Both the position numbers and the translations under genes were made by a program. The notes under the pieces are model-generated. The model saw only the letters and a program-made list of their open reading frames with translations, was not told where the DNA came from and searched no databases. 64,000 nucleotides of DNA from Clavibacter michiganensis subsp. tessellarius. Its GTDB lineage: Bacteria > Actinomycetota > Actinomycetes > Actinomycetales > Microbacteriaceae. The stretch is from NCBI RefSeq assembly GCF_021922985.1, contig NZ_CP040788.1, positions 1,674,001 to 1,738,000 of the forward strand. The letters run 5' to 3'. This document shows positions 6,173-26,261 of this stretch, piece after piece. Position 1 is the first letter of the stretch. Each line of letters begins with the position of its first letter.

Positions 6173-6193
6173 GCGCGTCTCCCCCGCACGACA

Positions 6194-6224
6194 CGAGCCC
6201 GCCGGTCGAGGACCGGCGGGCTCG
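6194..6224. terminator. Perfect bidirectional hairpin terminator
   Basis: A 14-bp perfect stem (6194-6207 with 6211-6224) closes a GAG triloop. It sits between the convergent gnd and the secreted-protein gene at 6242 and can serve both. It lacks a U-tract. Confidence 0.8.
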
Positions 6225-6241
6225 CGCACGTCAGGGGACGG

Positions 6242-6682: not shown

Positions 6683-6840
6683 CGCTCTCGTCCTTCCGTC
6701 GTCTTCCAGGGAGGCCGCGGACCGTGCGCCGCGGTCGCCGGCAGGGTAGGCGCGCCTCCGCCCTCCACGCGCGGATGCCTCACACGTGTGCACACGACGC
6801 GGCATCCGCTCGGCTGCGCTCCTCTGTCAGACTGGGGCGG

Positions 6841-7215: not shown

Positions 7216-7272
7216 TCCCGGGGCCGCCGGCCGCGCGGGACGCGGCGGCGGCGTGGGCGTGGGCGCTCGGGC

Positions 7273-8250: not shown

Positions 8251-8283
8251 GGGACTCCGTTTCGTCAGTGCTGCTCGGTGTTG

Positions 8284-9810
8284 TCAGGCGTCGGACGCGT
8301 CGTCCGCCCGCCCGTCGGCGGCCTCGACGGCGGCCCGGGCCTCGGGGGTGCCCGGTCGCTTGGCCTCGGTCCAGCCGACCATGTTGCGTTGCGGCGCCAC
8401 CGAGATGCCGAGTGCGCCGGGCGGGACGTCCTTGCGGATGACGGCACCGGCACCCGTGTAGGAGCCCGTACCGATCCTAACCGGTGCGACGAGGACGTTC
8501 CGCGAGCCGAGGTGCACGTGGTCGCCCACCTCCGTGTGGTGCTTGGCGTGCCCGTCGTAGTTGGCGAAGACGGCCCCCGCGCCGATGTTCGTGTGCGCGC
8601 CGATGGTCGCGTCGCCCACGTAGCTGAGGTGCGGGACCTTGCTGTGCTCGCCGATCTCGACGTTCTTCGTCTCGACGTACGCGCCGATCTTGCCGTCGTC
8701 GCCGAGGCGCGTGCCGGGGCGCAGGAAGGAGAAGGGGCCGACCGTGGCGCGGGCGCCGATGACGGCGAGCTGCGCGTCCGTGCGGCGGACCACCGCGTCC
8801 TCCCCCACCTCGGTGTCGCGGAGCGTGGTGTCGGGTCCGACGATCGCGCCCGCGGCGACCGTCGAGGCGCCGAGGATCTGCGTGCCGGGGAGGATCGTGA
8901 CGTCGGCGGCGAGCGCGGCCTTCACGTCGATCCACGTGGTGCGGGGGTCCTCGATGGTCGCGCCCGCGAGCTGCCAGCGGCGGATGATGCGCGCGTTCAG
9001 CTCGGTGGCCGCGGCCGTGAGCTGCACGCGGTCGTTGATGCCGGCGACGAGCCAGCTGTCGCGCACGGGCAGGGCCTCGATGGCGCCGCCCGCGCGGCGG
9101 ATCACGTCGGCCGCGTCGGTGAGGTACTTCTCGCGCTGCGCGTTCTCGGTGCCGATGGCGCCGAGGGTCTGTCGGAGCGCCTCGGCGTCGAACACGTAGA
9201 CGCCCGCGTTGACCTCGTCGATGCGCAGCTGCTCGCCGGTGGCGTCCTTCTGCTCGACGATGGCCTCGAACGCGCCGTGCTCGCCGCGGATGATGCGGCC
9301 GTTGCCGGTGGGGTCCTGCAGGCGGGCGGTGAGGAGCGTGAGGTCGTTGCGCGCCTGGCGGTGCGCGGAGACGAGGGAGCGCAGCGTCGCGGCGTCGAGC
9401 AGGGGCACGTCGCCGGAGAGCACGACGACCTGGCCGGTGAAGCCGTCGGGCAGGGCGGTGATGCCCACCTCGACCGCGCGGCCCGTGCCGGGGATGTCGT
9501 CCTGGTCGACGACGAGCGCCTGCGGCGAGAGCTCGCGGACGACCTCGACCACCTGGTCGCGCTCGTGGCGGACCACCGTGACGATGTGGCGCGCGCCCAG
9601 CTCCTCGGCCGTCGCGAGCACGTGGCCGACGAGCGGCAGGCCGGCGAGGCGGTGCAGGACCTTCGGGAGGCGCGAGCGCATGCGGGTCCCCTGGCCGGCC
9701 GCGAGGATCACGACGGCGATGGAGGGGCTGCGCGGCTCGCCGTCGACGTCGAGCTCGCCGGTCACGATGGGGATCTCGCGGGTCCTCGGCGTGCTGTCTG
9801 AGTCGGTCAT
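8284..9810 (-). CDS. glmU: Bifunctional GlmU (GlcN-1-P acetyltransferase / GlcNAc-1-P uridyltransferase)
   Basis: GlmU carries out the last two steps to UDP-N-acetylglucosamine, the precursor of peptidoglycan. The 508-residue chain has the uridyltransferase domain first, with LAAGQGTRMRSRLPKVLH after a 30-residue acidic extension, then GDVPLLDA, and NAGVYVFDAE near residue 190. From about residue 270 there is a left-handed beta-helix acetyltransferase domain of hexapeptide repeats, with RPGTRLGDDGKIGAYVETKN and NYDGHAKHHTEVGD. The ATG has GGGAG upstream at about 6 nt. prs follows at 33 bp, and tRNA-Gln lies 51 bp upstream on the same strand. Confidence 0.97.
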   Translation of the reverse strand: MTDSDSTPRTREIPIVTGELDVDGEPRSPSIAVVILAAGQGTRMRSRLPKVLHRLAGLPLVGHVLATAEELGARHIVTVVRHERDQVVEVVRELSPQALVVDQDDIPGTGRAVEVGITALPDGFTGQVVVLSGDVPLLDAATLRSLVSAHRQARNDLTLLTARLQDPTGNGRIIRGEHGAFEAIVEQKDATGEQLRIDEVNAGVYVFDAEALRQTLGAIGTENAQREKYLTDAADVIRRAGGAIEALPVRDSWLVAGINDRVQLTAAATELNARIIRRWQLAGATIEDPRTTWIDVKAALAADVTILPGTQILGASTVAAGAIVGPDTTLRDTEVGEDAVVRRTDAQLAVIGARATVGPFSFLRPGTRLGDDGKIGAYVETKNVEIGEHSKVPHLSYVGDATIGAHTNIGAGAVFANYDGHAKHHTEVGDHVHLGSRNVLVAPVRIGTGSYTGAGAVIRKDVPPGALGISVAPQRNMVGWTEAKRPGTPEARAAVEAADGRADDASDA

Positions 9811-9861
9811 GCGATCTCCCTGATCTGCGTAGCGTCTGTCCGGCGCGGCCGGATGGCGTCG

Positions 9862-9933
9862 CTCCGCCCCCAGGATTCGAACCTGGACCTCACAGCTCCA
9901 AAGGCTGAAGTGCTGCCGTTACACCAAGGCGGA
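9862..9933 (-). tRNA. tRNA-Gln (anticodon UUG)
   Basis: The minus strand folds as a 72-nt cloverleaf. The acceptor stem is a 7-bp TCCGCCT/GGGCGGA pair, with a G-T wobble at its inner end, and discriminator G. The D-loop region is GTGTAACGGCAGCAC. The anticodon loop CTTTGGA has UUG at positions 34-36, reading CAA glutamine codons. The T arm is CCAGG-TTCGAAT-CCTGG. The anticodon stem has four good pairs and a mismatched outer pair. CCA is not encoded. Confidence 0.92.
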
Positions 9934-10035
9934 CCGCTCACGGCCCGGCCGTGCGCAGGTCGAGTCTGCCAGAGGTGCCCGGGGCGGCCCGCACCGGCGA
10001 CCGGGCCGGGGCCGCCGGACCGGCATGATGGGGGG

Positions 10036-10539
10036 ATGCCCAGCCGCGACGAGGTCGACCGCATCGTCGACGCGTGGCGGCGCGAGCGGCCCGACCTCGA
10101 CTTCTCCCCGCTCGAGGTGCTCTCGCGGGTCGGCCGGCTGTCGCGGCTGCTCGAGCGCGCGCGGCGCTCCGCGTTCCAGGAGTCGGAGCTCGAGTCGTGG
10201 GAGTTCGACGTGCTGTCGGCGCTCCGGCGGGCGGGCGATCCCTACCAGCTGAGCCCCAAGGCGCTCCTGCAGCAGACGCTCGTCTCCTCCGGCACCATGA
10301 CGAACCGCATCGACCGGCTGGTGGCGCGCGGGCTCGTGGAGCGGCGGACGGATCCGCACGACGGGCGCGGGATCCTCGTCGTCATGTCGGCCGCGGGGCG
10401 CTCGCGGGTCGACACGGCGATCACGCGGCTCGTCGCCGAGGAGGCCGAGCTGCTGGAGACGATGGCGGCGGGCGACCGCGACGTGCTGGCGGGGCTGCTC
10501 AAGCAGCTCATCCTCGACTTCGACGACGACGGGGCCTGA
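10036..10539 (+). CDS. MarR-family transcriptional regulator
   Basis: The 167-residue protein has the MarR winged-helix layout. Long N-terminal and C-terminal dimerisation helices flank a DNA-binding core: LSPKALLQQTLVSSGTMTNRIDRL (helix-turn-helix) near residue 75, then the wing RGLVERRTDPHDGRGILVVMS near 98. Members usually repress a nearby gene and respond to phenolic or oxidant ligands. No adjacent codirectional gene exists, so the target is not evident. Initiation is probably leaderless: a CATGAT box ends 5 nt before the ATG and G-rich sequence lies between. The upstream neighbour is tRNA-Gln on the opposite strand. Confidence 0.88.
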   Translation: MPSRDEVDRIVDAWRRERPDLDFSPLEVLSRVGRLSRLLERARRSAFQESELESWEFDVLSALRRAGDPYQLSPKALLQQTLVSSGTMTNRIDRLVARGLVERRTDPHDGRGILVVMSAAGRSRVDTAITRLVAEEAELLETMAAGDRDVLAGLLKQLILDFDDDGA

Positions 10540-10567
10540 CCCGCGGGTCCCGTGGAAGGCCGCGCGC

Positions 10568-10924
10568 TCAGGCGTGCGCGACGCAGCGGCGCGCGGCCGG
10601 GCGGATCTCGAGCCGGCCCGCGGGGATCGGCTCGCCGCAGACCTCGCAGCGGCCGTAGGTCCCCGCGTCGAGGCGCGCGACCGCGGCGTCGACGTCCGCG
10701 AGGCGCACGCGGGCCTCGCGGATCATCGCGTCGGACTGCGAGCGCTCGAACGCGAGGGTCGCGCCCTCGGGGTCGTGCTCGTCGTCGGAGTTCGCGTCCT
10801 GGCGCGCCTCGACGATGGCCGCCACGTCCCGGTCGAGGCCGCGGATGAGCGCGAGCGTGTCGGCCCGGAGCGCGGCGAGGGCCGCGCGCGGGTCCGCCGG
10901 AGCGGACGCGGCGTCGTCGGCCAC
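10568..10924 (-). CDS. TraR/DksA-type zinc finger protein
   Basis: This 118-residue protein resembles the small DksA/TraR proteins that bind the RNA polymerase secondary channel or act as zinc-finger stress factors. It has an N-terminal helical coiled-coil region (residues 10-85) and the C-terminal motif YGRCEVCGEPIPAGRLEIRP near residue 90. The finger is unusual: the first pair is CxxC (CEVC), but the second pair reads CVAH, so the fourth zinc ligand would be His. The GTG start lies 7 nt after the stop codon of the flavin oxidoreductase gene, so the two are probably cotranscribed. The basal DksA loop residues cannot be assigned with certainty. Confidence 0.82.
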   Translation of the reverse strand: MADDAASAPADPRAALAALRADTLALIRGLDRDVAAIVEARQDANSDDEHDPEGATLAFERSQSDAMIREARVRLADVDAAVARLDAGTYGRCEVCGEPIPAGRLEIRPAARRCVAHA

Positions 10925-10931
10925 GGGCCGG

Positions 10932-11939
10932 CTACGCGGCGACGAGGGCGTGCGCGTCCGCGAGCAGCTCGACCGAGCGGAGCCGCTCGGGCGTGCGCTG
11001 CGACGCGTGCCCGACGATGACCTCGTCGACGCCCGCCTGCTCCGCGAACCGGTTCGCGTAGTCGGAGACCTCGGCGCCCGTGCCGATGCCCGTGTAGGTC
11101 ATCATGCTGGCGACGTGGGCGCCGACCGGGGCCTCGAGGAGCCGGTCGAGCTCGTCGTCGGTGAAGGTCTGCGTGGCCGGGATCTGGCCGCTCTGGCGGA
11201 GCAGCATCATCAGGCGCGCACGGCGGACGGCGGCGAACTGGCGCTCGGCGTCGGCGCGGTCGTCGGCCGCGATGGCGTTGATGCCCGCGATCGCGTACGG
11301 CTCCTGCAGCTGCTCCGAGGGGCGGAAGTCGCGGCGGTAGATGCGGATCGCCTCGAGGAGCGCGTCGGGCGCGAAGTGCGAGGCGAAGGCGTACGGCAGC
11401 CCGAGGGCGGCGGCCAGCTGCGCGCCGAAGAGCGAGGAGCCGAGGATGTAGAGGGGCACGCGCGTGCCCGCGCCGGGCGTCGCGGAGACGCCGGGCACCT
11501 GGCTCTCGCCGGAGAGGAAGCCCTGCAGCTCGACGACGTCCTCGGGGAAGCGGTCGGACGATCCCGGGTCGCGGCGGAGCGCCCGGAACGTGGCCTGGTC
11601 GCTGCCCGGGGCGCGGCCCAGGCCGAGGTCGATGCGGCCCGGGTGCAGCGTCTCGAGCGTGCCGAACTGCTCCGCGATGGCGAGCGGCGAGTGGTTCGGC
11701 AGCATGACGCCGCCGGAGCCGAGCCGGATGGTCGACGTCTGGCTCGCGACGTGGGCGATGAGCACGCTCGTCGCGCTCGACGCGATGCTGGCCATGTTGT
11801 GGTGCTCCGCGTACCAGACGCGGCGGTACCCGCTCCGCTCGGCCTGCTGGGCGAGGGCGACGGAGGCGGCGAAGCTGTCGCGCGCCGTCTCCCCGGGGGC
11901 GATGGGGGCGAGGTCGAGGATGGAGAGCGGGACGGTCAT
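10932..11939 (-). CDS. LLM-class flavin-dependent oxidoreductase (luciferase-like monooxygenase)
   Basis: The 335-residue protein belongs to the luciferase-like TIM-barrel flavoproteins, which use FMNH2 (or F420) on varied small substrates. The N-terminal [19 protein letters not shown] and [17 protein letters not shown] near residue 40 are typical of the MsnO8/YhbW-type subgroup. [41 protein letters not shown] follows near residue 75 (quoted in parts: [28 protein letters not shown]). The substrate cannot be told. ATG 11939 begins the conserved region; no good ribosome binding site is seen. It is followed at 7 nt by the TraR/DksA-like gene. Confidence 0.88.
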
Positions 11940-12027
11940 GCAGGGGTCAACAGCGGGACGGCCGCGAGTGTTCCTGGCCGCGTGGGTCGCGCGGATCCGG
12001 GCGCGTCGCGGGCGGGCCGCGGTGTCG

Positions 12028-12888
12028 TCAGGCGGTGGGCGCGGGGGTGCGGAACGGCGCCGCGGCATCCGGAGCGGGGTCCGCGGCGGCGGCTCCGGCG
12101 GCACCGGCGTGCGCTTCGGCAGGACCGGCGGCACCGACGCCCGCATCCGTCCCGCCGGCGGACGCGCCCGCCGCCGTCCGCTTCCGCCGCGCGACCGACC
12201 ACGCCGCGACGAGCCCCGCGAGCACCGCGCAGACGCCGGTCGCGAGCAGGATCCGCACGGCCTCCCCCGGCCCGGCGGGCACGAGCGGCAGCAGGATCTG
12301 CACGGCGAGCACGAGCATCACCCCGGCGATCACGGTGTCGAGCACGCGCCACGCGGCCGGCCGCGCGAGCACGGGCGCGAAGACGCGCGCGGCGGCCGCG
12401 AGGAGCGTGAACCAGACGCAGCTGGCGACCATCGCGCCCGCGCCGAAGGCCCAGCGCCCGTCGCCGTGGCCCGCGGCGACGGATCCGACGAGGAGCACCG
12501 TGTCGAGGTAGACGTGCGGGTTCAGCCAGGTGAGCGCGAGGCAGGCGGCGACGACCGCGCCGAGCGACCGGGGCGCGGAGGCGGCGACCGCGAGTCCCTG
12601 CGGAGCCGCGGCGCAGAGGAGCGAGAGCGCCGCGTAGCCGGCGAGGAAGCAGGCGCCGAGGATCCGGATCACGACGATCGCCACGGGCGCCGCCTCGATG
12701 ACCGCGCCGATGCCGCTCACGCCGAGCGCGATGAGGACCACGTCGGAGACCGCGCAGATGAGCACCACCACGACCACGTGCTCGCGCCGCGTGCCCTGCC
12801 GGAGGAGGAAGGCGTTCTGCGCGCCGATGGCGGCGATGAGCGAGAAGCCGAGCCCGAAGCCGGACAGCGCATGCGCGAGGGGGTGCAT
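12028..12888 (-). CDS. lysE: LysE/ArgO-family basic amino acid exporter
   Basis: This 286-residue membrane protein matches the LysE translocator family, which exports lysine and/or arginine and prevents harmful build-up during peptide growth. It has [16 protein letters not shown] near residue 18, the family signature, then six hydrophobic segments and the conserved [15 protein letters not shown] near residue 118. The last 60 residues form an Ala/Gly-rich tail not found in the core family. The start at 12888 follows a TAGCGT box by 7 nt (leaderless). The gene is divergent from a LysR-type regulator, the same layout as Corynebacterium lysE-lysG. Whether Lys or Arg is exported is not decided by the sequence. 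Confidence 0.9.
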
Positions 12889-12960
12889 GACGACCACGCT
12901 AGGCGCGCGCCGCGCATCAGACCAGCTCATGTTCCTGCGGCACCGTTAGCATCGCTGATG
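12889..12960. promoter_or_regulatory. Divergent lysE / lysG promoter region
   Basis: The 70-bp gap holds two outward -10 boxes: TAGCGT for lysE (minus, 12896-12901, 7 nt from its ATG) and TAGCAT for the regulator (plus, 12947-12952). CATCAG at 12915-12920 and CTGATG at 12955-12960 form a widely spaced inverted pair that could be part of the LysG operator. With both genes starting at or near their promoters, one bound regulator could govern both. Confidence 0.5.
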
Positions 12961-13854
12961 ATGGACATCCGCACCGAGCACCTGCGCACACTGGCCGCCG
13001 TCATCGACACCGGCACGCTCGACGCGGCCGCCCGCGCGCTCCGGCTGACGCCCTCCGCGGTGAGCCAGCGGATCACGGCGCTGGAGCGCAGCGCCGGCCG
13101 CGTCCTCCTCCGCCGCACCCGCCCGGCGACCACCACGGAGGCGGGCGACGCCGTGCTCCGGCACGCGCGCCAGGTGCTCCTGCTCGAGCGCGACCTCGAC
13201 GGGCTGCTCGGCGTGGGCGATGCCGACGCGCCGCGCGCCGGCACCGCGGCCGTGCCCGTGGTCGTTAACGGCGACTCGCTCGCGTCGTGGCTGCTGCCCG
13301 CCTTCGCGGCGCTCGCGGCCGAGACCGGCCAGGCCGTCGAGGTGCTGCGCGAGGACGAGCACCACTCCCTCGACCTCCTGCGCGACGGATCCGCGATGGC
13401 CGCCGTCACGAGCGTGCGCGAGGCGGTGCAGGGCTGCACCTCGGAGCGCCTCGGCCGGATGCGGTACCGCGCGCTCGCGACCCCCGCCTACGTCGCCGCG
13501 CACCTCCCCGACGGGCCCACGCCGAGCGCGCTGGCCGTGGCTCCGCTCGTCATGTTCGACCGCAAGGACGCGATGCAGGACCGCTGGCTCCGCGGCCGCC
13601 GCGCGCCCGCCGGCCAGCCGCGCCACTACGTGCCGTCGTCCGCGGAGTTCGTCACGGCCGTCACGCTCGGCATGGGCTGGGGCATGCTGCCGGACCTGCA
13701 GAGCGAGGACCTCGTCGCGTCGGGCGCGCTGGTGCCGCTCGACGCCGGATCGCACGTGGACGTGGCGCTGCACTGGCAGCGCTGGAGCGTCGACTCCCCC
13801 GTGCTCGCCGACCTCACGCGCCACGTGCGCGCCGCGGCCGCCTCGCTCCGGTAG
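12961..13854 (+). CDS. lysG: LysG/ArgP-type LysR-family regulator
   Basis: The 297-residue protein is a LysR-type activator of the ArgP/LysG group. The N-terminal helix-turn-helix is TGTLDAAARALRLTPSAVSQ at residues 17-36, followed by RITALERSAGRVLLRRTRP. The effector domain starts near residue 95 with VVVNGDSLASWLLPA and includes VLREDEHHSLDLLRDGSAMAAV and VTLGMGWGMLPD, both typical of ArgP. It should bind Lys or Arg and switch on the divergent exporter gene. Two ATGs stand side by side (12958 and 12961). The second is 8 nt, the first 5 nt, after the TAGCAT box; neither has a ribosome binding site. Confidence 0.92.
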   Translation: MDIRTEHLRTLAAVIDTGTLDAAARALRLTPSAVSQRITALERSAGRVLLRRTRPATTTEAGDAVLRHARQVLLLERDLDGLLGVGDADAPRAGTAAVPVVVNGDSLASWLLPAFAALAAETGQAVEVLREDEHHSLDLLRDGSAMAAVTSVREAVQGCTSERLGRMRYRALATPAYVAAHLPDGPTPSALAVAPLVMFDRKDAMQDRWLRGRRAPAGQPRHYVPSSAEFVTAVTLGMGWGMLPDLQSEDLVASGALVPLDAGSHVDVALHWQRWSVDSPVLADLTRHVRAAAASLR

Positions 13855-13911
13855 GGAGCGGGCGGCCGCGGGTCGTGCCGTCGCGGCGCACGCGGCGGGC
13901 GCGGCGCCGGA

Positions 13912-14571
13912 TCAGCGCCGGAGCGCCGCCCGGGCCAGCGTGTTGCCGAGGAGCTGCACCACCTGCACGAGCACGATGATGATCAGCACGGCCGCCCAGG
14001 TCACCACCGGCTCGAACTGCCGGTAGCCGTAGACGATGGCGAAGTCGCCGAGGCCGCCGCCGCCGACCGCGCCCGCCACCGCCGTCATGTCGACGATGCC
14101 GACGAAGACGAACGTGTAGCCGAGGATCAGCGGCCCGAGCGCCTCGGGGAGCAGCAGCGTGAAGATGATCCGCAGCGGGCTCGCGCCCACGGAGCGGGCC
14201 GCCTCGATCACGCCCGGCTGCACCGTCAGCAGGTTCTGCTCCACGATGCGGCTGATCGCGAAGGACGCCCCGAGCGACAGCGTGAAGATGACCGCCGGCT
14301 GCCCGATGCCGCTGCCGGTGACGGCGCGGGCGAGGGGCTGGGCGGCGACCAGGAAGATCACGAACGGGATGGGCCGGAACGTGTTCACCACGACGTTGAG
14401 CACCGCGAACACGGGCCGGTTCGCGAGCAGGCTGCCGGCGCGCGTGAGGTAGAGCCCGAGGCCCATGATCAGGCCGCCGAGCCCGCCGAACAGGAGCGTG
14501 AGCAGCACCATGGTGAGCGTCTCGACCGTGGAGCGGCCGAGGAGCGGCAGGAGCGGGGTCAGCGCGTCCAT
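13912..14571 (-). CDS. metI: Methionine ABC transporter permease MetI
   Basis: MetI is the membrane subunit of the D/L-methionine importer. The 219-residue protein has five hydrophobic segments and the permease coupling motif EAARSVGASPLRIIFTLLLPEALGPL near residues 122-147 (EAA loop: EAARSVGASPLRII). NTFRPIPFVIFL near residue 63 and AVAGAVGGGGLGDFAIVYGYRQF near residue 165 are characteristic of MetI. Its ATG is 1 nt after the stop of metN, so the two are translationally linked. It is the last gene of metQ-metN-metI. Confidence 0.96.
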   Translation of the reverse strand: MDALTPLLPLLGRSTVETLTMVLLTLLFGGLGGLIMGLGLYLTRAGSLLANRPVFAVLNVVVNTFRPIPFVIFLVAAQPLARAVTGSGIGQPAVIFTLSLGASFAISRIVEQNLLTVQPGVIEAARSVGASPLRIIFTLLLPEALGPLILGYTFVFVGIVDMTAVAGAVGGGGLGDFAIVYGYRQFEPVVTWAAVLIIIVLVQVVQLLGNTLARAALRR

Positions 14572-14572
14572 C

Positions 14573-15610
14573 TCAGACCACCTCCGTGACGGTGACGCCG
14601 GCGCGGTCGGCGGCGAGCACCTGGTCGATGCGCGGGGCGTCGCCCGTGAGCGCGAGGGTCAGGTTGCCGAACGTGCGGCCCTGGACGTCGGTGATGCCGC
14701 CGTGCACGACCTCGAACGCGACGCCCGCCTCGGCGAGCGCGCGGAACACCTCGGTCTGGGTGGCGCCGCCGTCGGCGAAGGACAGCGTGACGAGCCGGCC
14801 GGGGTGCCGCTCGCGGAGCCGGGCGACCTCGTCGGCCTCCGGCACGCCCGCGACGACCGTCGAGACGAAGCGGCGGGCCGCGTCGCTCGTGGGCCGCGAG
14901 AAGACGTCGAAGACCTCGCCCTGCTCGATGACGCGGCCGGAGTCCATGACGGCCACGCGGTCGGCGATGGACTTGATGACCTCCATCTCGTGCGTGATCA
15001 CCACGATGGTGACGCCGAGCTCCTCGTTCACCCGGCGGAGCAGCGCGAGCACCTCGCCCGTGGTCTCCGGGTCCAGGGCGCTCGTGGCCTCGTCGGCGAG
15101 CAGGATCGCGGGGCTCGTCGCGAGCGCGCGGGCGATGCCCACGCGCTGCTTCTGGCCGCCGGAGAGCTCGTCGGTCCGCGCGTGCGCCTTGTCGGCGAGG
15201 CCGACGAAGTGCAGGAGGTCGCTGATCCGCCGCTGCTGCGCGTCGCGCGGCATGCCCGCGACCTGCAGCGGGTACGCCACGTTGCCCCACACCGTCTTCG
15301 ACGTGAAGAGGTTGAACTGCTGGAAGACCATGCCGATGCCGAGGCGCAGCTTCCGCAGCTCGCGCTCGGGCAGGTCCTGGATCTCGCGACCGTCGACCGC
15401 GACCGTGCCGGACGTCGGCCGCTCGAGCGCGTTCACCAGCCGCACCAGCGTGCTCTTGCCCGCGCCGGAGTAGCCGATGATGCCGAACACCTCGCCGCGG
15501 CGGATGTCGAGGTCGACGTCCGCGAGGGCGGCGAGGCCCGGCTCGCCCTTCGCGCGCGGCGGGTAGGTCTTGCCGACGCCCCGCAGGGAGACGTGCGGGG
15601 CGTCCGTCAT
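14573..15610 (-). CDS. metN: Methionine ABC transporter ATPase MetN
   Basis: MetN powers methionine import. The 345-residue chain has Walker A GYSGAGKST near residue 45, Q-loop GMVFQQFNLF, signature LSGGQKQRVGIARAL near 148 and Walker B ILLADEATSALD. From about residue 260 there is a C-terminal NIL-type domain (VTLSFADGGATQTEVFRALA), the regulatory domain that binds methionine and shuts the transporter in trans. The ATG overlaps the metQ stop (ATGA), so metQ and metN are translationally coupled. Confidence 0.96.
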   Translation of the reverse strand: MTDAPHVSLRGVGKTYPPRAKGEPGLAALADVDLDIRRGEVFGIIGYSGAGKSTLVRLVNALERPTSGTVAVDGREIQDLPERELRKLRLGIGMVFQQFNLFTSKTVWGNVAYPLQVAGMPRDAQQRRISDLLHFVGLADKAHARTDELSGGQKQRVGIARALATSPAILLADEATSALDPETTGEVLALLRRVNEELGVTIVVITHEMEVIKSIADRVAVMDSGRVIEQGEVFDVFSRPTSDAARRFVSTVVAGVPEADEVARLRERHPGRLVTLSFADGGATQTEVFRALAEAGVAFEVVHGGITDVQGRTFGNLTLALTGDAPRIDQVLAADRAGVTVTEVV

Positions 15611-16554
15611 CGAACCGCCTTCTGATCGGCGACGGCCTTCTCGGTGGTGGTGAGGAGGTCCTGCAGCTCGGCCTGCGGCGTCTTCAGCGGCACGGCCGTG
15701 CCGCCCGAGTTCTCGACCAGCGCGTCGATGACCGCGGGGGTGTCCTCGAAGATCCGCGCCAGCTTCGCGTAGGTCTCGTTCGTGGCGTCGTCGGCGCGGC
15801 TGGCGAAGACGTTGACGTAGGCGAGGGCCTTGGGGTCGCTGGGGTCGTCCTGCGCGAGGGCGCTGTCGGCGGTGAGGCCGGCGTCGGTGATGAAGTCGTT
15901 GTTGATGATGACGGCGTCGGCGTCCGGCAGCGAGGTCGCGGTGAGCGCGGCGTCCACCGTCGTGACGGTGACCTTCGACGCGGCCTGGTCGACGTCGTCG
16001 AGGGTGGAGACGCTGGATCCGCCGCCCTTCAGCGTGAGCAGGCCCTCGCGCTGGAGCAGGAGGAGGCCGCGGGCGAGGTTCGACTCGTCGTTCGGCAGGA
16101 TGACGGTGCCGCCCCGGGGGATCTCGTCGACCGAGCCGTGCTTCTGCGAGTAGAGCCCGAGCGGGTAGATCGCGGTGGCGCCGACGGGCGTGAGGTCGTC
16201 GCCCGCGCCCTCGTTGTACTGCGCGAGGTAGACGAGGTGCTGGAACTGGTTGAGGTCGATCTCGCCCTCGGACAGCGCGGGGTTCAGCTGCGGGTACTCG
16301 GAGAAGTTCACGATCTCCACGTCGATGCCCTGCTCCTTCGCCGCCTCGACGAAGACGGGCCACTGCGGGTCGCTCGCGCCGACGACGCCGATGCGGACGG
16401 CCTTGCCGCCGCCCGAGAAGGCGCCGGTCGCGAAGAGGACGGCGCCGACGACCGCCAGGACCACGACGATGCCCACGATCGCGATGACGAGCCGGTTGCG
16501 CCGCTTCGGGGCGTCGATCAGGGGGGCCGGGGTGGGCGATGCCGGGGTGGTCAT
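15607..16554 (-). CDS. metQ: Methionine-binding protein MetQ (NlpA family), membrane anchored
   Basis: The 315-residue substrate-binding protein captures methionine for MetNI. After a basic stretch (PKRRNR) a single hydrophobic helix at about residues 20-42 anchors it. There is no cysteine lipobox, unlike most MetQ proteins. The NlpA-family core follows: IGVVGASDPQWPVFVEAAK, VNFSEYPQLNPALSEGEID, DLNQFQHLVYLAQYN near residue 100, VILPNDESNLARGLLLLQREGLL near 150 and NNDFITDAGL near 220. ATG has AGAGGA at about 6 nt. It is the first gene of the operon and lies behind a 300-nt leader. Confidence 0.94.
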   Translation of the reverse strand: MTTPASPTPAPLIDAPKRRNRLVIAIVGIVVVLAVVGAVLFATGAFSGGGKAVRIGVVGASDPQWPVFVEAAKEQGIDVEIVNFSEYPQLNPALSEGEIDLNQFQHLVYLAQYNEGAGDDLTPVGATAIYPLGLYSQKHGSVDEIPRGGTVILPNDESNLARGLLLLQREGLLTLKGGGSSVSTLDDVDQAASKVTVTTVDAALTATSLPDADAVIINNDFITDAGLTADSALAQDDPSDPKALAYVNVFASRADDATNETYAKLARIFEDTPAVIDALVENSGGTAVPLKTPQAELQDLLTTTEKAVADQKAVR

Positions 16555-16868
16555 GGGGGTCCTCTCGATGGTGCGCGGTGCGGGGCTGCGGTGCCGGTGC
16601 TGTCCGGCGGTGGTGCGGGTGGTGGTCGGTGTCGGTGCTGCTGGGGTGCCTGTCGTGCGGGTCGTGCCGGGGTGCGGGTGGTGCCGGGTGAGCGGCGGGC
16701 ATGCGGACGCGCGGACGCGGACGCGGCCGGTCGAGGGCGTGCGGGAGCGGGACCCGCGCGGACGCGGGCCTCGACGACGCCGTGGCGGAGCGCGGCGGAC
16801 GCGCGCCTCGCGGGAGCGGGGACGCCGCCCGTGGCCTGTGGCCGCGTCCCTGCAGCACCTCGACGGTA
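16555..16868 (-). promoter_or_regulatory. Long C-rich leader and probable promoter of metQNI
   Basis: There is no gene in 16555-16960. A TACCGT -10 candidate on the minus strand (16863-16868) implies a leader of about 300 nt before metQ. From about 16570 to 16700 the leader RNA is extremely C-rich with A and almost no U, full of CAC and ACC triplets, and looks unstructured. That is the composition of a Rho-loading (rut) region. The promoter-proximal half is GC-rich and can fold. I looked for SAM-I, SAM-II and SAM-IV consensus pieces and found none. A long frame with His/Pro/Thr codons is open through the leader, but no start codon with a ribosome binding site supports it. Confidence 0.4.
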
Positions 16869-16960
16869 GGCCGCGCCGCCGCGGCCTGTCGAACCGAGCC
16901 GTAACACGGGGACACCGCGGGGGCCCGCCCGATGTGGCAGGGTCGGCCACGGAGGTGCCC

Positions 16961-17866
16961 ATGCACGACGACGACGACGCCGTCACCGCGCTCCCCCTCG
17001 AGGAGCTGCGGCGCCGCGTGTACGCGCAGGGGGCCGACGAGCGCGACGAGCGGTGGATCCGCGCGGCCGCCGAGCTGGCCCGCCGCGAGCGCGCGTCCCG
17101 GCCCGCGGGGTCCGGGGACGAGGACGCGGACGCCGCGGACGCCTCCGACGCCTCCGACGGCTACGGCGACGCCGGCTCTCGCGCGGACGGCGACGGGTCC
17201 GGGTCCGACCCCGACTCCCCCGCCGGCCCCGCCGCGCCCGCCCCGCGCCGCGCGTCCCGCCGCGCCCTCGCCGGGGCGGCCGCCGCCGTGCTCGCGGTCG
17301 GGCTCCTCGCGGGCGGGGCCGTCGGCCGGGCCATGGGCGGCGGATCCTCCGACCCGGCCCCGGACGCGGCCGCCGGCGCGGCTCCCGTCCCCGGGGCCGA
17401 CGCGCCCCCGTCCGCCACCGGATCCGCCGGCACCGGATCCGCCGCCGCGAGCCCCGGCGCGCCCGCCCTCCTCGGCCCCGACTCCACCTCCGACCAGCGC
17501 AGCCGCCCGGTCGGCGCGGTCTTCGACGGCCCGCAGGAGGACGCGGACCGTCCGCCGAAGGCCGTGCGCGCCGACGTCGACGCCACCTCCATCCGCGCGG
17601 TGCAGACGAGCGTCGGGCTCTACGCGGGGCTGTCGACCACGGGCGACCTCTGCCTCATCGTCTTCCCGAGCGGCGGCGCGGGCGTCGTCACGTGCGCGTC
17701 GCCCGACCGCGTCGCGTCCGACGGCCTGCGCGTCGCGTGGACCACGGAGTTCCCGTCGCGCAACCGGGACGGCTCGACGGGCATGATCACGGGCGACGTG
17801 GAGGCGACCTGGTCGGGCGACGACCTCATCACCCTGACGACGCCGGACCGCATCCTCGCGTACTGA
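16961..17866 (+). CDS. Single-span membrane protein, paralog A1
   Basis: I know no named family. The 301-residue protein has a cytoplasmic N-terminus with the motif VYAQGADERDERWIRAAAEL near residue 22, then RRERAS, a charged Asp/Gly/Ser linker, one span at about residues 107-127 (LAGAAAAVLAVGLLAGGAVG), an Ala/Pro-rich stalk, and an external domain of about 130 residues. That domain contains DGPQEDADRP, IRAVQTSVGLYAGL, DLCLIVFPS and a second Cys (VTCAS). It ends in LAY. The next gene is a clear tandem paralog. GGAGG precedes the ATG at 5 nt. A shared GATGTGG-AGGGTCGGC block lies upstream of both. The layout resembles a sensor or anti-sigma factor, but no zinc motif or anti-sigma helix is recognisable. 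Confidence 0.78.
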   Translation: MHDDDDAVTALPLEELRRRVYAQGADERDERWIRAAAELARRERASRPAGSGDEDADAADASDASDGYGDAGSRADGDGSGSDPDSPAGPAAPAPRRASRRALAGAAAAVLAVGLLAGGAVGRAMGGGSSDPAPDAAAGAAPVPGADAPPSATGSAGTGSAAASPGAPALLGPDSTSDQRSRPVGAVFDGPQEDADRPPKAVRADVDATSIRAVQTSVGLYAGLSTTGDLCLIVFPSGGAGVVTCASPDRVASDGLRVAWTTEFPSRNRDGSTGMITGDVEATWSGDDLITLTTPDRILAY

Positions 17867-17926
17867 GCGGACTCGCGCGGCCGCCTCGGGCGATGTGGGA
17901 GGGTCGGCGCGGGAAGGGGATCGCGC

Positions 17927-18745
17927 ATGCACCCACGCACGTCCGGCCACGACGACGGGCTCCGCTCGCTGACGACCGACGAGCTCCGCCGGGCCGTCTA
18001 CGCGCAGGGCGCCGACGCGGCCGACGAGCGGTGGATCCGCGCCGCCGCCGAGCTCACGCGCCGCGAGCGCGCGTCGCAGCCCGACGACCACGCCGACGCG
18101 GCGGACGACGCGGCCGACCCGGCGGCTCCGCCCGCCCGATCCCGCCGCGCGCTCGCGTGGGCCGGCGCCGCGCTGGTAGTCGGGCTGCTCGCGGGTGCGG
18201 GCGTCGCCGCGGCCGTGGGCGGATCCCCGGCGCCGTCCGCCGACGCCACCGCGACCCCGTCCTCGGACGCGACCGCCGACGCGGAGGACGCCCCGGACCC
18301 GGCGCGCATGCGCTCGCTCCTCGGCACCGACATCACCCGCACCTCGGGCGGCGTCGCGGTCGACGGGATCCTCGCCGCCCCGCAGGAGCAGGCCGACCGG
18401 CCGCTCCGGTCCCCCGGCGGCGACGTCGACCTCACCACCATCCGCGGCGTGCAGACGAGCGTCGGCCTCTACGTGGCGCGCACGATCTCCGGCGACGCGT
18501 GCCTGCTCGTGTACCCGTGGAGCGGATCCCGTCCCGACGCGGACGGCACGCCGGGCTCCGGCGTCGCCGCGTGCGCCCCGCCCGCGCAGCTCGCGGTCTC
18601 GGGCCTCGAGGTCACCTGGATCGCGGACATGCCGGTGCGCCAGTTCGACGGCGGCGTGCGGATGCGCGGCGGCGGCCTCACCGCCGTCTGGGCGCCCGAC
18701 GGCAAGCTCACCCTGAGCTCGCCCGACGTGCCGCTGGCCTACTGA
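17927..18745 (+). CDS. Single-span membrane protein, paralog A2
   Basis: This 272-residue protein is a tandem duplicate of the gene before it. Shared blocks in the same order are VYAQGADAADERWIRAAAEL then RRERAS, one span at about residues 75-95 (ALAWAGAALVVGLLAGAGVA), APQEQADRP, IRGVQTSVGLYVA, two cysteines (DACLLVY, AACAPP) and a final LAY. The linker and stalk have diverged. This suggests that the cytoplasmic 25-residue motif and the external domain are under selection. It starts at ATG after GGAAGGGG, and the 20 bp around 17890-17910 repeat the block upstream of A1. Function is unknown. Confidence 0.78.
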   Translation: MHPRTSGHDDGLRSLTTDELRRAVYAQGADAADERWIRAAAELTRRERASQPDDHADAADDAADPAAPPARSRRALAWAGAALVVGLLAGAGVAAAVGGSPAPSADATATPSSDATADAEDAPDPARMRSLLGTDITRTSGGVAVDGILAAPQEQADRPLRSPGGDVDLTTIRGVQTSVGLYVARTISGDACLLVYPWSGSRPDADGTPGSGVAACAPPAQLAVSGLEVTWIADMPVRQFDGGVRMRGGGLTAVWAPDGKLTLSSPDVPLAY

Positions 18746-22144: not shown

Positions 22145-22315
22145 GTGGCATTCATCGTCGTCCTGCTCGTCCTCTGGCTGATCCTCACGGTCGTCGGCTT
22201 CGCCATCAAGGGCCTCGTCTGGCTCGGGATCATCGGCATCATCCTGGTCATCGGCACCATCGTGCTCGGCGCCCTCCGCCGCCGCTACAACGCGGCGAAG
22301 ACGCCCAAGGCCTAG
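22145..22315 (+). CDS. Small hydrophobic membrane protein
   Basis: The 56-residue product is almost wholly hydrophobic. Two membrane segments (FIVVLLVLWLILTVVGFAI and LVWLGIIGIILVIGTIVLGAL) join through the short loop KG, and the tail is basic (RRRYNAAKTPKA). Small proteins of this kind are widespread in actinobacteria with unknown function. The GTG start has a good GAAGGA ribosome binding site 7 nt upstream. Its stop and the stop of the convergent ABC gene share the same CTAG tetranucleotide (22312-22315). Confidence 0.78.
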   Translation: MAFIVVLLVLWLILTVVGFAIKGLVWLGIIGIILVIGTIVLGALRRRYNAAKTPKA

Positions 22316-23025
22316 GCGCCGCCTGTGGTGGCGCGGTGACCTCGCTCGAGCGACACCACCCGGCTGCAGGCCGCGGCCACCTCGGGATCGTGGGTGACGA
22401 TCACGACGGCGGTCCCCCGGCGCCGCATGCCGTCGAGGAGGTCGAGCACGCGCGCGCGGTTCGCCGGATCCAGCGAACCGGTCGGCTCGTCGGCCAGCAC
22501 GAGCGCCCGCGGCCGGAGCGCCAGCCGCGCCAGGGCCAGGCGCTGCTGCTCGCCGCCGGACAGCTCGTAGACGCGATCGCGGGCGTGATCGGCCAGCCCG
22601 ACCGACGCCAGCGCCTCCTCCCGCATCTCGGCACGTGATCGGCGGGTGCCTCCCGTCCACGCCTGGGCGACGCGGAGGTTGCCCTCCGCGGTCTCCTCGT
22701 CCAGGAGCGCGAAGCTCTGGAAGAGGTACCCGATCCGTTCCGCGAGCAGACGACGCGCGCCCCGGGATCCGGGACGTGGGGCGGACCGGTCGAAGAGCCG
22801 CAGGTCCCCGGAGGTCGGGCGGTCGAGGAGGCCGATCATGTTCAGCACCGTGGACTTCCCGCACCCGCTCCGACCGGTCAGGGCCACCATCTCGCCCGCC
22901 TCGACGCGCAGCGAGAGCCCGCGCACCACCTCCCGTCCGCGGAACGAGCGGGTGACGTCGGTGAGCTCGCAGACCGCGGTCCCGGGAGCCGCGGAGGTGA
23001 CGTGCGTGGATCCGGTCTCGTGCAT
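22312..23025 (-). CDS. Bacteriocin-type ABC transporter ATPase (lactococcin 972 group)
   Basis: The 237-residue ATPase is a LolD/MacB-like subunit with Walker A GRSGCGKST near residue 51, Q-loop YLFQSFALLDEETAEGNL near 100, signature LSGGEQQRLALARLAL near 155 and Walker B LVLADEPTGSLDP. ETAEGNL after the Q-loop and the partner genes fit the ATPase subgroup found with lactococcin-972 bacteriocins. Its ATG overlaps the stop of the upstream membrane protein (ATGA), so both are made together. No separate permease gene is present, so the large membrane protein is presumably its partner. Likely role: export of, or self-protection against, the peptide encoded at 25392. Confidence 0.88.
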   Translation of the reverse strand: MHETGSTHVTSAAPGTAVCELTDVTRSFRGREVVRGLSLRVEAGEMVALTGRSGCGKSTVLNMIGLLDRPTSGDLRLFDRSAPRPGSRGARRLLAERIGYLFQSFALLDEETAEGNLRVAQAWTGGTRRSRAEMREEALASVGLADHARDRVYELSGGEQQRLALARLALRPRALVLADEPTGSLDPANRARVLDLLDGMRRRGTAVVIVTHDPEVAAACSRVVSLERGHRATTGGA

Positions 23026-25301
23026 CAGAAGGCTCCCTTGAGGATGTCGACGGTGCGCCGTCGCTCGAGGCGCACCGCCCAGGCCGCGGAGACGACCAGC
23101 TCGATGGCGAGCACGGCCGCCGTGGCGATCAGGACCCCGCCCACTCCCGAATCCGCGCTGCTCCCGTCCGCCGCCGTCGCGGTGCCGAGGCCCGCGTAGC
23201 CCGCGGCGTGCGCGGCGAGCGCGGCGCCGACTTGGACCGCCCAGACCGCGCCGAGCACGCCGAGGGACTCCGCGTAGCGCCGCACGAGCCCGTGGCCGAA
23301 CATCTTGCGGATCACGATCCGGCGGGAGAACCGCTCGAACATCAGGCCGACGCTCTGCAGGGTCAGCACGAGGACGCCCACGAGCAGGAGCGCACCCACG
23401 AGGGCGAGGAGCCGCAGCTCGTCGTCGAGGCGCTGCACCTCCGCCGCCTGGTGGTCGTCGAGGGTGGTCAGGTGGGTGAGGTTGTCATCCAGGTGGAGCC
23501 GCCGGAGCGTCGGGGCGAGCTCGGCCAGCGTGGCCTCTGTCGAGCCGCCGTCGAGACGGACCTTGAGGGCATCGCCGATCCCGCCGCTCATCATGTTCGC
23601 GCGGTCGAACCCGACGCTGCCCGCCCGGGTCATGACCTGCACGACGGGGTCCGTCACGTTCCCGCCGTCATCCGCCCCCACCGACGGGTCGAAGGCGAAG
23701 AGGCGCTGGCCGGGTCGGGTCCAGATGATCCGCACCTGCTGCCTCGACGTGTCGAGCCCCCCGTCGCGATGGAAGAGGGATCGGTCCGCCTGCCCCATGC
23801 CGCGCCGCGCATCCTGGAAGGTGCGCCGCAGATCGTCCTCCCGTCCGTGCATCGTCGCCGGGACGAGCACGGTCCAGTCCGCGTCCCCCTCGTCGACGAC
23901 CACGGGCTCCCCGCCCTCGTCGAGGATCGGGAACGCCGTCAGGTAGGCGGGGTTGACGACGAGGGAGGCGAGATGCGTCGATCCGCCGCGCGACCCGCCA
24001 TCCGGACTCGGGAGATCAGGGATCCGCAGCCCCGACGCGTCGACGTACAGCGCGCCACGCGCATCGAGCTCGTCGTAGAGGTCGTACGCCTCGTTCGCGA
24101 GGCGGCCCAGGTCCGACCCGCCCCCGACCTCGCCGTCGTCGCCGATCGCCTGCGGATGGAACACCGCATAGCCCGAGGCCCGGCTCCAGCTGCCGACCAG
24201 CTCCTGCTGGTGCCGGATGACCTGGACCTGCGATGCCGTGGTCGCGCCCGTGATCACGAGCGCGACGGTCGCGGCGGCCTTCAGCGTCGTGCTGGTCCAG
24301 AAGAGCGCTCGCGTGTCCTTCCGGTCCTTCAGGGCATCCGCGATGCGCAGCCGTCGGATCGTGACGCAGGTGAGGGACGAGGCGACGAGGAGCGCGCCGA
24401 GGAGCCGGGCGATCGCGCCGCCCACGATGACCGCCAGCGCGACGGTGCTCCCGGGCACGAGCGGAGTGGCCGCCACCGCGAGCGCTCCGGTGGTCCCCAC
24501 GGTGAGGAGCAGGAGCCGGCCCGTGGTGAGGAACCACACCTCGAACGTGCCGCGGCCGTGCAGCCGGAGCACGCCCGTGCGCCGTGCCTGCGCGAGCTGG
24601 CGGTAGAGGATGAGGATGACGACGAACAGGAACAGGATGACGACGACGGCGGTCACCGGCTCGACCCCGCCCGTGCTCGATCCTCCGCCGCTGTGCGGCG
24701 TCGCCAGGAGGTCGGCCGTGAGGTCCGCCTCGGGAGCGCGCTCGTCGACGAGCGCGGCGACTCGCTCCAGGAATGCGCGGCAGTCCTCCTGGGACCGGCA
24801 CTCCATGCGGTACGCGCCGTCGGGCAGCAGGGTGTCGAACGCGGTGCGCAGGGGCCGGATGAGGAACCGGTCGTCCTCGCCGAGGTCCGCGATGGTGCCG
24901 ACGGCCGAGGGGTCGCCGACCGCCGCCGTGGCGACGGAGCCGGTGCTGCCCCGGGACTCCTCCGGCGTGAGGAACCGCCCCGTCGACAGCGGGAAGGCGC
25001 CCGGCAGCTGCGATCCGTCAGTGAGGAGGACGTAGAGCGTCGTCCTCTCCTGCGCGCCCTCGACGCCCTCCGCCCGGCGGACGACCGAGACGCCGGTCTC
25101 CTGGGAAGCGGTGGCGAAGGCGTCCGCGACGATGTCCGGATCCGTCGTCTCGGGCAGGACCGGGACGACGAACGGCGAGCCCCACCCCGCGGCGACCGCG
25201 TCGCGTGCCGCGCGGTCCCGCATGTCGGCGTCGACGGCGGCGGCTCCCGCGACGACGAAGGTGAGCACCACGCAGAGGAGGACGAGGAGCCTCGAGATCA
25301 T
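23025..25301 (-). CDS. Bacteriocin-associated integral membrane protein (DUF1430 type)
   Basis: This 758-residue protein has the layout of the multi-span protein that accompanies lactococcin-972-type bacteriocins (TIGR01654-like). An N-terminal span (RLLVLLCVVLTFVVAGAAAV) is followed by an external region of about 180 residues, then four spans between about residues 205 and 355 (for example AVVVILFLFVVILILYRQL). A second external region of about 250 residues and three C-terminal spans from about residue 630 follow. This is a FtsX/MacB-like permease arrangement. The protein is coupled by ATGA to the ATPase gene. It probably serves in immunity or peptide export; which of the two is not decided here. 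It begins 90 bp downstream of the peptide gene. Confidence 0.85.
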   Translation of the reverse strand: MISRLLVLLCVVLTFVVAGAAAVDADMRDRAARDAVAAGWGSPFVVPVLPETTDPDIVADAFATASQETGVSVVRRAEGVEGAQERTTLYVLLTDGSQLPGAFPLSTGRFLTPEESRGSTGSVATAAVGDPSAVGTIADLGEDDRFLIRPLRTAFDTLLPDGAYRMECRSQEDCRAFLERVAALVDERAPEADLTADLLATPHSGGGSSTGGVEPVTAVVVILFLFVVILILYRQLAQARRTGVLRLHGRGTFEVWFLTTGRLLLLTVGTTGALAVAATPLVPGSTVALAVIVGGAIARLLGALLVASSLTCVTIRRLRIADALKDRKDTRALFWTSTTLKAAATVALVITGATTASQVQVIRHQQELVGSWSRASGYAVFHPQAIGDDGEVGGGSDLGRLANEAYDLYDELDARGALYVDASGLRIPDLPSPDGGSRGGSTHLASLVVNPAYLTAFPILDEGGEPVVVDEGDADWTVLVPATMHGREDDLRRTFQDARRGMGQADRSLFHRDGGLDTSRQQVRIIWTRPGQRLFAFDPSVGADDGGNVTDPVVQVMTRAGSVGFDRANMMSGGIGDALKVRLDGGSTEATLAELAPTLRRLHLDDNLTHLTTLDDHQAAEVQRLDDELRLLALVGALLLVGVLVLTLQSVGLMFERFSRRIVIRKMFGHGLVRRYAESLGVLGAVWAVQVGAALAAHAAGYAGLGTATAADGSSADSGVGGVLIATAAVLAIELVVSAAWAVRLERRRTVDILKGAF

Positions 25302-25391
25302 CGGCTCGTCGGCGAGGTCGAGTTCAGCACCGCGCGTCTCCCCTGCGGAGCGAGCGCGTCCGGCCGTTCGATTCGCGGGGGCTGATCACGA

Positions 25392-25712
25392 TCAGTAGTT
25401 GTCCCAGTACGCGTATCCGTGCTGGAAGGGAGAGCAATGGACCTGGGCGTCGGCCCAGCTGCCCGCCTCCGCGTACTCCTTGTCGGCGTTGCTGTCATCC
25501 GGGCATCGGACGGTGGCCGAGTGCAGGTGGAGCGCGGTCCGATAATTGGAGTACACGCTCTTGTCGAACACGGAATGGACGTGCGTGCTGTAGTCCCAGT
25601 AGCACTGGCAGTTCACGGGCTTGTAGCTGTTCTCCGCGAGGGCCGGAGCCGCGGATGCTCCGATGATCCCCACGGAGATCAAAGCGGTCGCGAGAAGAGC
25701 GCGTCTATGCAC
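25392..25712 (-). CDS. Lactococcin 972-like secreted bacteriocin precursor
   Basis: The 106-residue precursor starts with a Sec signal peptide (HRRALLATALISVGIIGASA) and probably is cut after APALA near residue 26. This leaves about 80 residues. Family hallmarks are YSNYRTALHLHSATV near residue 58 (compare the SNYxxxxxxHSATV pattern of lactococcin 972), AGSWADAQV near 88, and an aromatic end, HGYAYWDNY. Unlike lactococcin 972, this peptide has four cysteines (QCQCYW region, VRCPD, VHCSPF), which may form disulfides. The GTG start has AAAGGA at about 7 nt. GC content is visibly lower than in neighbours. Lactococcin 972 itself binds lipid II and blocks septum formation; whether this member does so is inference. 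Confidence 0.87.
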   Translation of the reverse strand: MHRRALLATALISVGIIGASAAPALAENSYKPVNCQCYWDYSTHVHSVFDKSVYSNYRTALHLHSATVRCPDDSNADKEYAEAGSWADAQVHCSPFQHGYAYWDNY

Positions 25713-25753
25713 GGGGTGTCCTTTGTCCGGGGGCGGCGAGCGCCGATGACCGG

Positions 25754-25759
25754 AACCTA
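25754..25759 (-). promoter_or_regulatory. -10 candidate of the bacteriocin operon
   Basis: TAGGTT on the minus strand lies 41 nt upstream of the GTG start of the bacteriocin precursor. No convincing -35 hexamer is present. The leader between this box and the start carries the AAAGGA ribosome binding site. Confidence 0.4.
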
Positions 25760-25829
25760 GGACACGCGCTCCGCTCCGCGCGCGACTGTCCACATGCTCG
25801 GGCGGCGCTCGGCGACGCGGCCGAAGGGG

Positions 25830-26261
25830 CTACCCGAGCGACGCCACCCACTCGCTCGTGCCGTCGTCGAAGGCCTGCTGCTTCCAGATGGGGACGCGCT
25901 GCTTGACCTCGTCCACGAGCAGGCCGCACGCGGCGAACGCGTCCGCCCGATGCGCGGAGGAGACGGCGCACGTGAGCGCCACGTCGCCGATGCCGAGGCG
26001 GCCGATGCGGTGCTCGACGGCGATCCGCACGTCGGGGTAGCGGGCGGAGACGTCGAGCGCGACCTGCCGGATCGCCTGGCGGGCGGCCGGATGCGCGGAG
26101 TAGTCGAGCCAGAGGACGCCCCTGCCGTCGTCGTGGTCGCGCACGACGCCCTCGAACGTCACGACGGCGCCGGCGTCGTCGGCGCGGACGGCGTCGGCGC
26201 AGTCCTCGACGCGGATCGCGCCGCCCGCGATGCGCGCGAAGAGGACGCGGTCGGCGGTCAC
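25830..26261 (-). CDS. moaE: Molybdopterin synthase catalytic subunit MoaE
   Basis: MoaE, with thiocarboxylated MoaD, inserts the two sulfurs that turn cyclic pyranopterin phosphate into molybdopterin. The 143-residue protein shows GAVVTFEGVVRDHDDGRGV near residue 30 and LDYSAHPAARQAIRQVA near residue 51. HRIGRLGIGDVALTCAVSSAHR follows near 85 (quoted in part: HRIGRLGIGDVAL, VSSAHRADAF). The catalytic loop VDEVKQRVPIWKQQ near 120 carries the essential lysines. Its GTG start overlaps the stop of mog (GTGA). The partner gene moaD is 32 kb away. Confidence 0.95.
   Translation of the reverse strand: MTADRVLFARIAGGAIRVEDCADAVRADDAGAVVTFEGVVRDHDDGRGVLWLDYSAHPAARQAIRQVALDVSARYPDVRIAVEHRIGRLGIGDVALTCAVSSAHRADAFAACGLLVDEVKQRVPIWKQQAFDDGTSEWVASLG

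What the first reader, a model, noticed from the sequence alone, without database searches (positions are those of the whole stretch)
22312..25712. Lactococcin-972-like bacteriocin locus with a four-cysteine peptide
Three genes in order on one strand (secreted peptide, 758-residue multi-span protein, dedicated ABC ATPase) match the lactococcin 972 group, known best from Firmicutes. The peptide keeps the SNY...HSATV core, the AGSWA motif and an aromatic C-terminus, but adds four cysteines that the founding peptide lacks. That suggests a disulfide-stabilised variant in an actinobacterium. GC of the peptide gene is lower than its surroundings. If active, it would target cell wall synthesis of close relatives.
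Basis: partly seen in the sequence, partly recalled or inferred. Interest (0 to 1): 0.85.

Follow-up and report, generated by a model that had tools for sequence, protein, structure and literature searches.

The report
Four-cysteine lactococcin-972-type bacteriocin operon
A plant-associated Clavibacter genome carries a small operon that probably makes a secreted peptide against rival bacteria, of a known family but with an unusual cysteine pattern, together with a membrane pump that more likely protects the producer than exports the peptide.

The parts
25745..25800 (-). conserved upstream block (GTGGACAG...GTGTCCTAGGTTC on the gene strand), promoter-like
   Evidence: shared with G016, which lacks the peptide gene but keeps this block, and with G011, where a 70-aa two-TM ORF lies behind it; promoter function not tested
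25392..25712 (-). peptide gene: 106-aa precursor, lactococcin 972 family (PF09683), GTG start
   Evidence: PF09683 33.8 bits; GC 0.626
25635..25712 (-). Sec-type signal peptide, residues 1-26, likely cleaved after ALA
   Evidence: by eye from the translation; no signal-peptide predictor was run
25395..25634 (-). mature 80-residue peptide, six-strand beta fold
25602..25610 (-). C35-x-C37, replacing the Gly-Gly before the conserved Trp
   Evidence: in 5 of 5 close homologues and 0 of 17 looser relatives aligned; Gly in 55 of 55 (first column) and 53 of 55 (second) rows outside the close group
25503..25505 (-). C70
   Evidence: also a Cys in 5 of 17 looser relatives
25434..25436 (-). C93
   Evidence: also a Cys in 13 of 17 looser relatives
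23025..25301 (-). 758-aa membrane protein (DUF1430 / TIGR01654-like): two MacB/FtsX-like halves, TM1-ECD-TM2-4 and TM5-ECD-TM6-8
   Evidence: predicted model
22312..23025 (-). 237-aa ABC ATPase, best model TIGR03608, nearest solved sequence MacB ATPase domain
22145..22315 (+). left flank: 56-aa small membrane protein; edge of the variable site in most Clavibacter genomes mapped
25830..26261 (-). right flank: moaE-like gene (name recalled, not searched); other edge of the variable site

Best explanation
A lactococcin-972-family bacteriocin operon of a Clavibacter. The peptide leaves the cell through Sec, folds into the lactococcin 972 beta-sandwich, is probably locked by disulfides (C70-C93 most likely; C35/C37 paired with each other or linking a dimer), and binds lipid II of close relatives, blocking septal cell-wall synthesis. 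The 758-aa protein and the ATPase form a type VII (MacB/FtsX/BceAB-like) ABC complex, one fused permease pair with two ATPases, which protects the producer by levering peptide off lipid II or out of the membrane. Shown here: genes, profile matches, predicted folds, natural splits of the membrane protein, cysteine conservation, and a genome that lacks the peptide but keeps the pair. Inferred: secretion, disulfides, lipid II binding, killing, the complex's make-up, immunity.
Against: The TIGR01653, TIGR01654 and TIGR03608 curated cut-offs are not reached. B has eight TMs and two outer domains, not the ten TMs and one domain of BceB. Fold matches of B are of modest quality over the whole chain (Foldseek TM 0.36/0.35 to YbbP, rmsd 14). 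A sequence profile of B finds no credible solved structure. The repeat signal between its halves is weak (hhalign probability 77%, P 2.1e-5). PMC9408558 (passage) argues that DUF1430 proteins may not be real ABC proteins. PMC11796350 (passages and Discussion) says the B and C genes were never verified in any lactococcin 972 locus, and that strains with intact but unexpressed B and C genes were killed. The peptide lost the near-universal Gly-Gly, so its target could differ. P0018 has C70 without C93, and nine relatives have C93 alone, so C70-C93 pairing is not forced. The G016 gap rests on one draft assembly.
Confidence: 0.68

Rival explanations
1. B and C are the dedicated exporter of the peptide, as TIGR03608's name says (putative bacteriocin export ABC transporter).
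For: Best profile TIGR03608; MacB and HrtB, parts of export pumps, are among the fold matches.
Against: The peptide has a Sec-type leader by eye; G016 and three further B places lack a recognised peptide. Reports on two family members also point to Sec or to no dedicated transporter (PMC12345188 passages; PMC11796350 Discussion).
Confidence: 0.15
2. The four cysteines with conserved His64, His92 and His98 (precursor numbering) hold a metal rather than two disulfides, and the metal site replaces the Gly-Gly structure.
For: A CxC motif and these histidines are kept in the five close homologues.
Against: Secreted small beta proteins usually oxidise paired cysteines (general knowledge); relatives have C70 and C93 without C35/C37. 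No metal test was possible.
Confidence: 0.12
3. The peptide is a member of the fold family but not an antibacterial: a surface, plant-directed or signalling peptide with ABC partners.
For: Gly-Gly lost; host genus is plant-associated; a fish-pathogen member, Sil, is reported to be both antimicrobial and immunomodulating (PMC4004548, title in a search listing).
Against: Keeps the bacteriocin operon order; peptide-negative, B/C-positive G016 fits immunity; patchy distribution (B in 3 of 18 Clavibacter genomes).
Confidence: 0.1

Closest known systems
Lactococcin 972 operon of Lactococcus lactis pBL1 (lcn972-orf2-orf3)
   Different: Lcn972 has no cysteine (PMC8538875, passage); the window peptide has four, lacks the Gly of GTW, and falls below TIGR01653.
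Arthrobacter- and Mycetocola-type relatives (P0005-P0018; three of them carry organism names)
   Same: Similar loops; Cys at the C93 position, at C70, or at both, in 13 of these 14; sister B and ATPase in G114/G224.
   Different: Keep the Gly-Gly before Trp and lack C35/C37; the Mycetocola peptide P0005 has no cysteine.
BceAB-type transporters of Bacillus
   Different: BceB has ten TMs and one outer domain (PMC11466899, passages); here eight TMs and two.
YbbAP and MacB/LolCDE/FtsEX (type VII ABC)
   Same: Best fold match YbbP; MacB-like ATPase.
   Different: No credible sequence match of B in PDB; different operon partner.

Membership tests
Lactococcin_972 (Pfam PF09683) | score above Pfam gathering cut-off | tested here: met
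   33.8 bits against 22
Lactococcin_972 (Pfam PF09683) | lactococcin 972 beta-sandwich fold | tested here: met
Lactococcin_972 (Pfam PF09683) | operon with a DUF1430-type membrane protein and an ABC ATPase | tested here: met
Lactococcin_972 (Pfam PF09683) | lipid II binding and septum inhibition | not testable with these tools
   needs purified peptide
Lactococcin_972 (Pfam PF09683) | Gly-Gly before the conserved Trp (a common feature of the rows compared here, not a published definition) | tested here: not met
   Gly in 55 of 55 and 53 of 55 rows outside the close group at the two columns; CxC there in 5 of 5 close ones
TIGR01653 subfamily (lactococcin_972) | curated score cut-off | tested here: not met
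   19.9 against 32.1 bits; not filed there
TIGR01654 / TIGR03608 subfamilies | curated score cut-offs | tested here: not met
   165.5 against 189.35; 224.7 against 254.85. 27 of 27 ATPases aligned, window's included, match TIGR03608 at E 1e-20 or better, best E 5.2e-71
Type VII ABC (MacB/FtsX fold) | TM-outer domain-three TM unit with MacB-like ATPase | tested here: met
   predicted model and hydropathy only
FtsX family (Pfam PF02687) | Pfam match | tested here: not met
   only DUF1430 matched; DUF1430 is in the same Pfam clan as FtsX (PMC6588880, passage)
BceAB-type transporter | ten TMs and a single outer domain in one chain | tested here: not met
   eight TMs, two outer domains; works like, not a member

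The most novel reading that the evidence does not exclude
In this lineage the lactococcin 972 scaffold has exchanged its Gly-Gly entrance for a C-x-C lock and changed how it grips its target, while its partners are a stand-alone type VII ABC target-protection device that outlives the peptide in some genomes; different small secreted proteins replace one another at the same chromosomal site, so the site is a bacteriocin exchange locus of Clavibacter.
Probability: 0.25. Interest if true: 0.65.

Novelty: new variant of a known kind. Interest (0 to 1): 0.48.

Why it matters
According to PMC11796350 the roles of the two partner genes have not been verified experimentally in any lactococcin 972 locus. 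The two-half type VII build, its natural splits, and B/C pairs without a recognised peptide give a specific, testable answer: immunity by target protection. The cysteine series offers natural variants to test what stabilises this fold and its lipid II grip.

Tried and rejected
The search for related loci in genome contigs gave one locus, a 20-residue match in Anaeromassilibacillus: taken as chance. TIGR01653 over the own genome found nothing, although PF09683 did. No plasmid record matched the peptide (own and near records may be left out). Two of the own genome's three extra contigs, 8 kb of each, were compared with plasmids (the third, fetched, was not): Clavibacter made up 24 of 39 and 44 of 46 matching records, so the genus is clear and the species is not. 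A profile search of B against PDB sequences found nothing credible (best E 0.14). The internal-repeat test by hhalign was too weak to use alone. Papers: 'lactococcin 972' with Clavibacter gave one review, not read; 'CmmAMP-I' gave none; 'formosin' with 'bacteriocin' gave one staphylococcal skin-infection review, not read. Searches (40 of 125 papers listed; 20 of 38 listed) and the passages of PMC11521342 showed no paper on this operon in Clavibacter; subscription journals are mostly not held. Explanations dropped: chance ORF (homologues conserved); lanthipeptide (no modification genes seen in the operon, by eye).

Limits of counts: L095 and identical rows were dropped, leaving 60 rows, and my trimming cut the N-termini of P0003 and P0004, which have four cysteines, so the printed tally 17/39/1/3 for 0/2/3/4 Cys should read 17/37/1/5. 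A1 used 50 sequences, not every peptide; L065 (in-frame TAG) and L095 were among those left out. Of the 30 looser relatives (where only the 8000 candidates sharing most words were scored) 17 were aligned; the other 13 (P0019-P0024, P0028-P0034) I only read by eye, and each has GGGTW there. Searches used too strict limits for neighbour genes; one search is the one counted. One search warns of long branches in both trees. The absence of a peptide at G175:C2, G178 and G329 rests on the PF09683 search and a look by eye.

Full report
WHAT IS THERE. The window is Clavibacter DNA: the nearest named peptide is from Clavibacter sepedonicus (77% identical) and two of the genome's extra contigs match mostly Clavibacter plasmids; the species was not resolved. 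Three genes run leftwards between a 56-aa small membrane gene and a moaE-like gene (name recalled): peptide 25712-25392, B 25301-23025, ATPase C 23025-22312. C starts on the last base of B's stop. GC is 0.626, 0.730 and 0.744 against 0.744 for the window.

PROFILES. The peptide passes Pfam PF09683 (33.8 bits, cut-off 22) and misses TIGR01653 (19.9, cut-off 32.1). B and C have TIGR01654 and TIGR03608 as best NCBIfam models but below their curated cut-offs. Of the 28 B proteins aligned in A3, the window's included, 17 match TIGR01654 at E 1e-3 or better; 27 of 27 ATPases in A2, the window's included, match TIGR03608, best E 5.2e-71.

DISTRIBUTION. PF09683 occurs in 3 of 18 Clavibacter genomes, 44 of 398 Microbacteriaceae genomes and 4 of 396 genomes sampled over the phylum; each count includes the window's own genome. 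Within the 18 Clavibacter genomes only the window's and G012 have the four-cysteine type; G008 has six two-cysteine copies elsewhere.

CYSTEINES. I compared 60 peptide rows (tally corrected as told under Tried and rejected): 17 have no cysteine in the trimmed part, 37 two, one three, five four. A common two-cysteine pattern (HxxTAC...C; 27 rows with Cys at each of its two columns) is a close pair that does not match the window's four. An alignment search with the close group and two Mycetocola-type rows brought 30 looser relatives; I aligned 17 of the 30 with the five close ones and scored the four columns: all four Cys in 5; C70 and C93 in 4; C93 alone in 9; C70 alone in 1; none in 3. C35-x-C37 takes the place of the Gly-Gly before the conserved Trp; in the 55 rows outside the close group the two columns are Gly in 55 and 53, and the 13 relatives not aligned also have GGGTW by eye. 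The simplest order is C93, then C70, then C35/C37, with C70-C93 as the older bridge: an inference, and P0018 with C70 alone shows that loss or another order occurs. A single cysteine in ten relatives could link a dimer; lactococcin 972 is described as homodimeric in a cited title (reference list).

TWO OPERON CLASSES. Of 61 peptide places outside the window, 27 have a multi-span ORF of 657 aa or more and an ATPase scoring 232 bits or more with the window-based profile (class A, the window's), 22 have an ATPase scoring only 136-169 and no multi-span ORF by my filter (class B), and 12 have no such ATPase in range (two of these with a 218- or 242-aa multi-span ORF). The HxxTAC...C peptides (32 places) fall 4, 19 and 9 in these; cysteine-free ones (17) fall 12, 3 and 2; other cysteine patterns (12) fall 11, 0 and 1. 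In trees of B and of C, the window and G012 (with G016 for B) are sister to G114/G224, whose peptide has no cysteine, with 100/100 and 100/99 support.

EXPORT OR IMMUNITY. The peptide has a Sec-type leader by eye. In G016 the aligned upstream flank and B lie about 30 bases apart: the peptide gene is absent, the upstream block is kept, B is 95% identical with an open frame, and C is open, ending a few residues earlier. No PF09683 match exists elsewhere in G016. An assembly fault cannot be excluded. Among 398 Microbacteriaceae genomes, 29 places match the B profile at E below 1e-60, and 4 of these (G016, G175:C2, G178, G329) have no PF09683 match nearby; I looked upstream of the last three by eye and saw no peptide, and a MarR-like ORF in G178 (name by eye). 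A divergent peptide could be missed. Published lcn972 work calls orf2-orf3 immunity genes (PMC4055356, passages), while PMC11796350 states that these roles are unverified and that strains with unexpressed B/C genes are killed. BceAB is proposed to free lipid II cycle intermediates from peptides (PMC7038271, abstract). I therefore read B/C as a target-protection immunity device, with export as the main rival.

THE SITE. Mapping 18 Clavibacter genomes: five (G001, G002, G006, G010, G017) join the two flanks with under 45 bases between the aligned parts; G000 and G012 have A-B-C; G016 has B-C behind a glycosyltransferase-type cluster; G009 and G015 have that cluster alone; G011 has it plus a 70-aa two-TM ORF; G003, G005 and G014 have it plus a 193-aa (181-aa frame in G003) secreted-looking ORF, a 78-aa two-TM ORF and a second copy of the moaE end; G008 has only the latter set; G007 and G013 have other ORFs; G004 was not resolved. 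Cargo names are mine from reading the translations. So the operon occupies a variable chromosomal site.

PRIOR WORK SEEN. Lactococcin 972-like clusters are in print for Curtobacterium, also Microbacteriaceae (PMC10456417, passages), and Brevibacterium. NCBI already names the C. sepedonicus orthologue a lactococcin 972 family bacteriocin.

VERDICT. A member of Pfam PF09683 outside the curated TIGR01653 range: a new variant of a known bacteriocin kind. The added value is the C-x-C exchange, the cysteine series, the two-half type VII nature of B, and the B/C pairs without a recognised peptide.

Noticed in passing
L044 (G008), 5000-18000: Six PF09683 copies in a Clavibacter genome: three different two-cysteine peptides in one locus, each found twice at a spacing of 7766 bases, suggesting a tandem duplication.
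   Followed up: partly
L135:7252-7833, L131:7172-7753, L133:7176-7757, L124:2166-2711: Low-GC cassette at the same site in four Clavibacter genomes: a secreted-looking ORF of about 193 aa (two of the four scanned, no Pfam family above its cut-off) plus a 78-aa two-TM ORF and a duplicated moaE end; possibly another bacteriocin. Whether it is the published Clavibacter protein CmmAMP-I (recalled) was not testable here.
   Followed up: partly
L069:8203-11612: Class B operon beside a two-cysteine peptide: lipoprotein-like ORF, adaptor-like ORF, ATPase and a single MacB-like permease (names by eye), a different partner set from the window's. Only this one class B locus was read.
   Followed up: partly
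L138 and L147 (G984), L139 (G1132), L137 (G936): The membrane protein is split into two ORFs; in G984 they flank the ATPase.
   Followed up: yes
L175 (G178): B homologue without a recognised peptide, behind a MarR-like ORF (by eye): possible stand-alone resistance pair.
   Followed up: no
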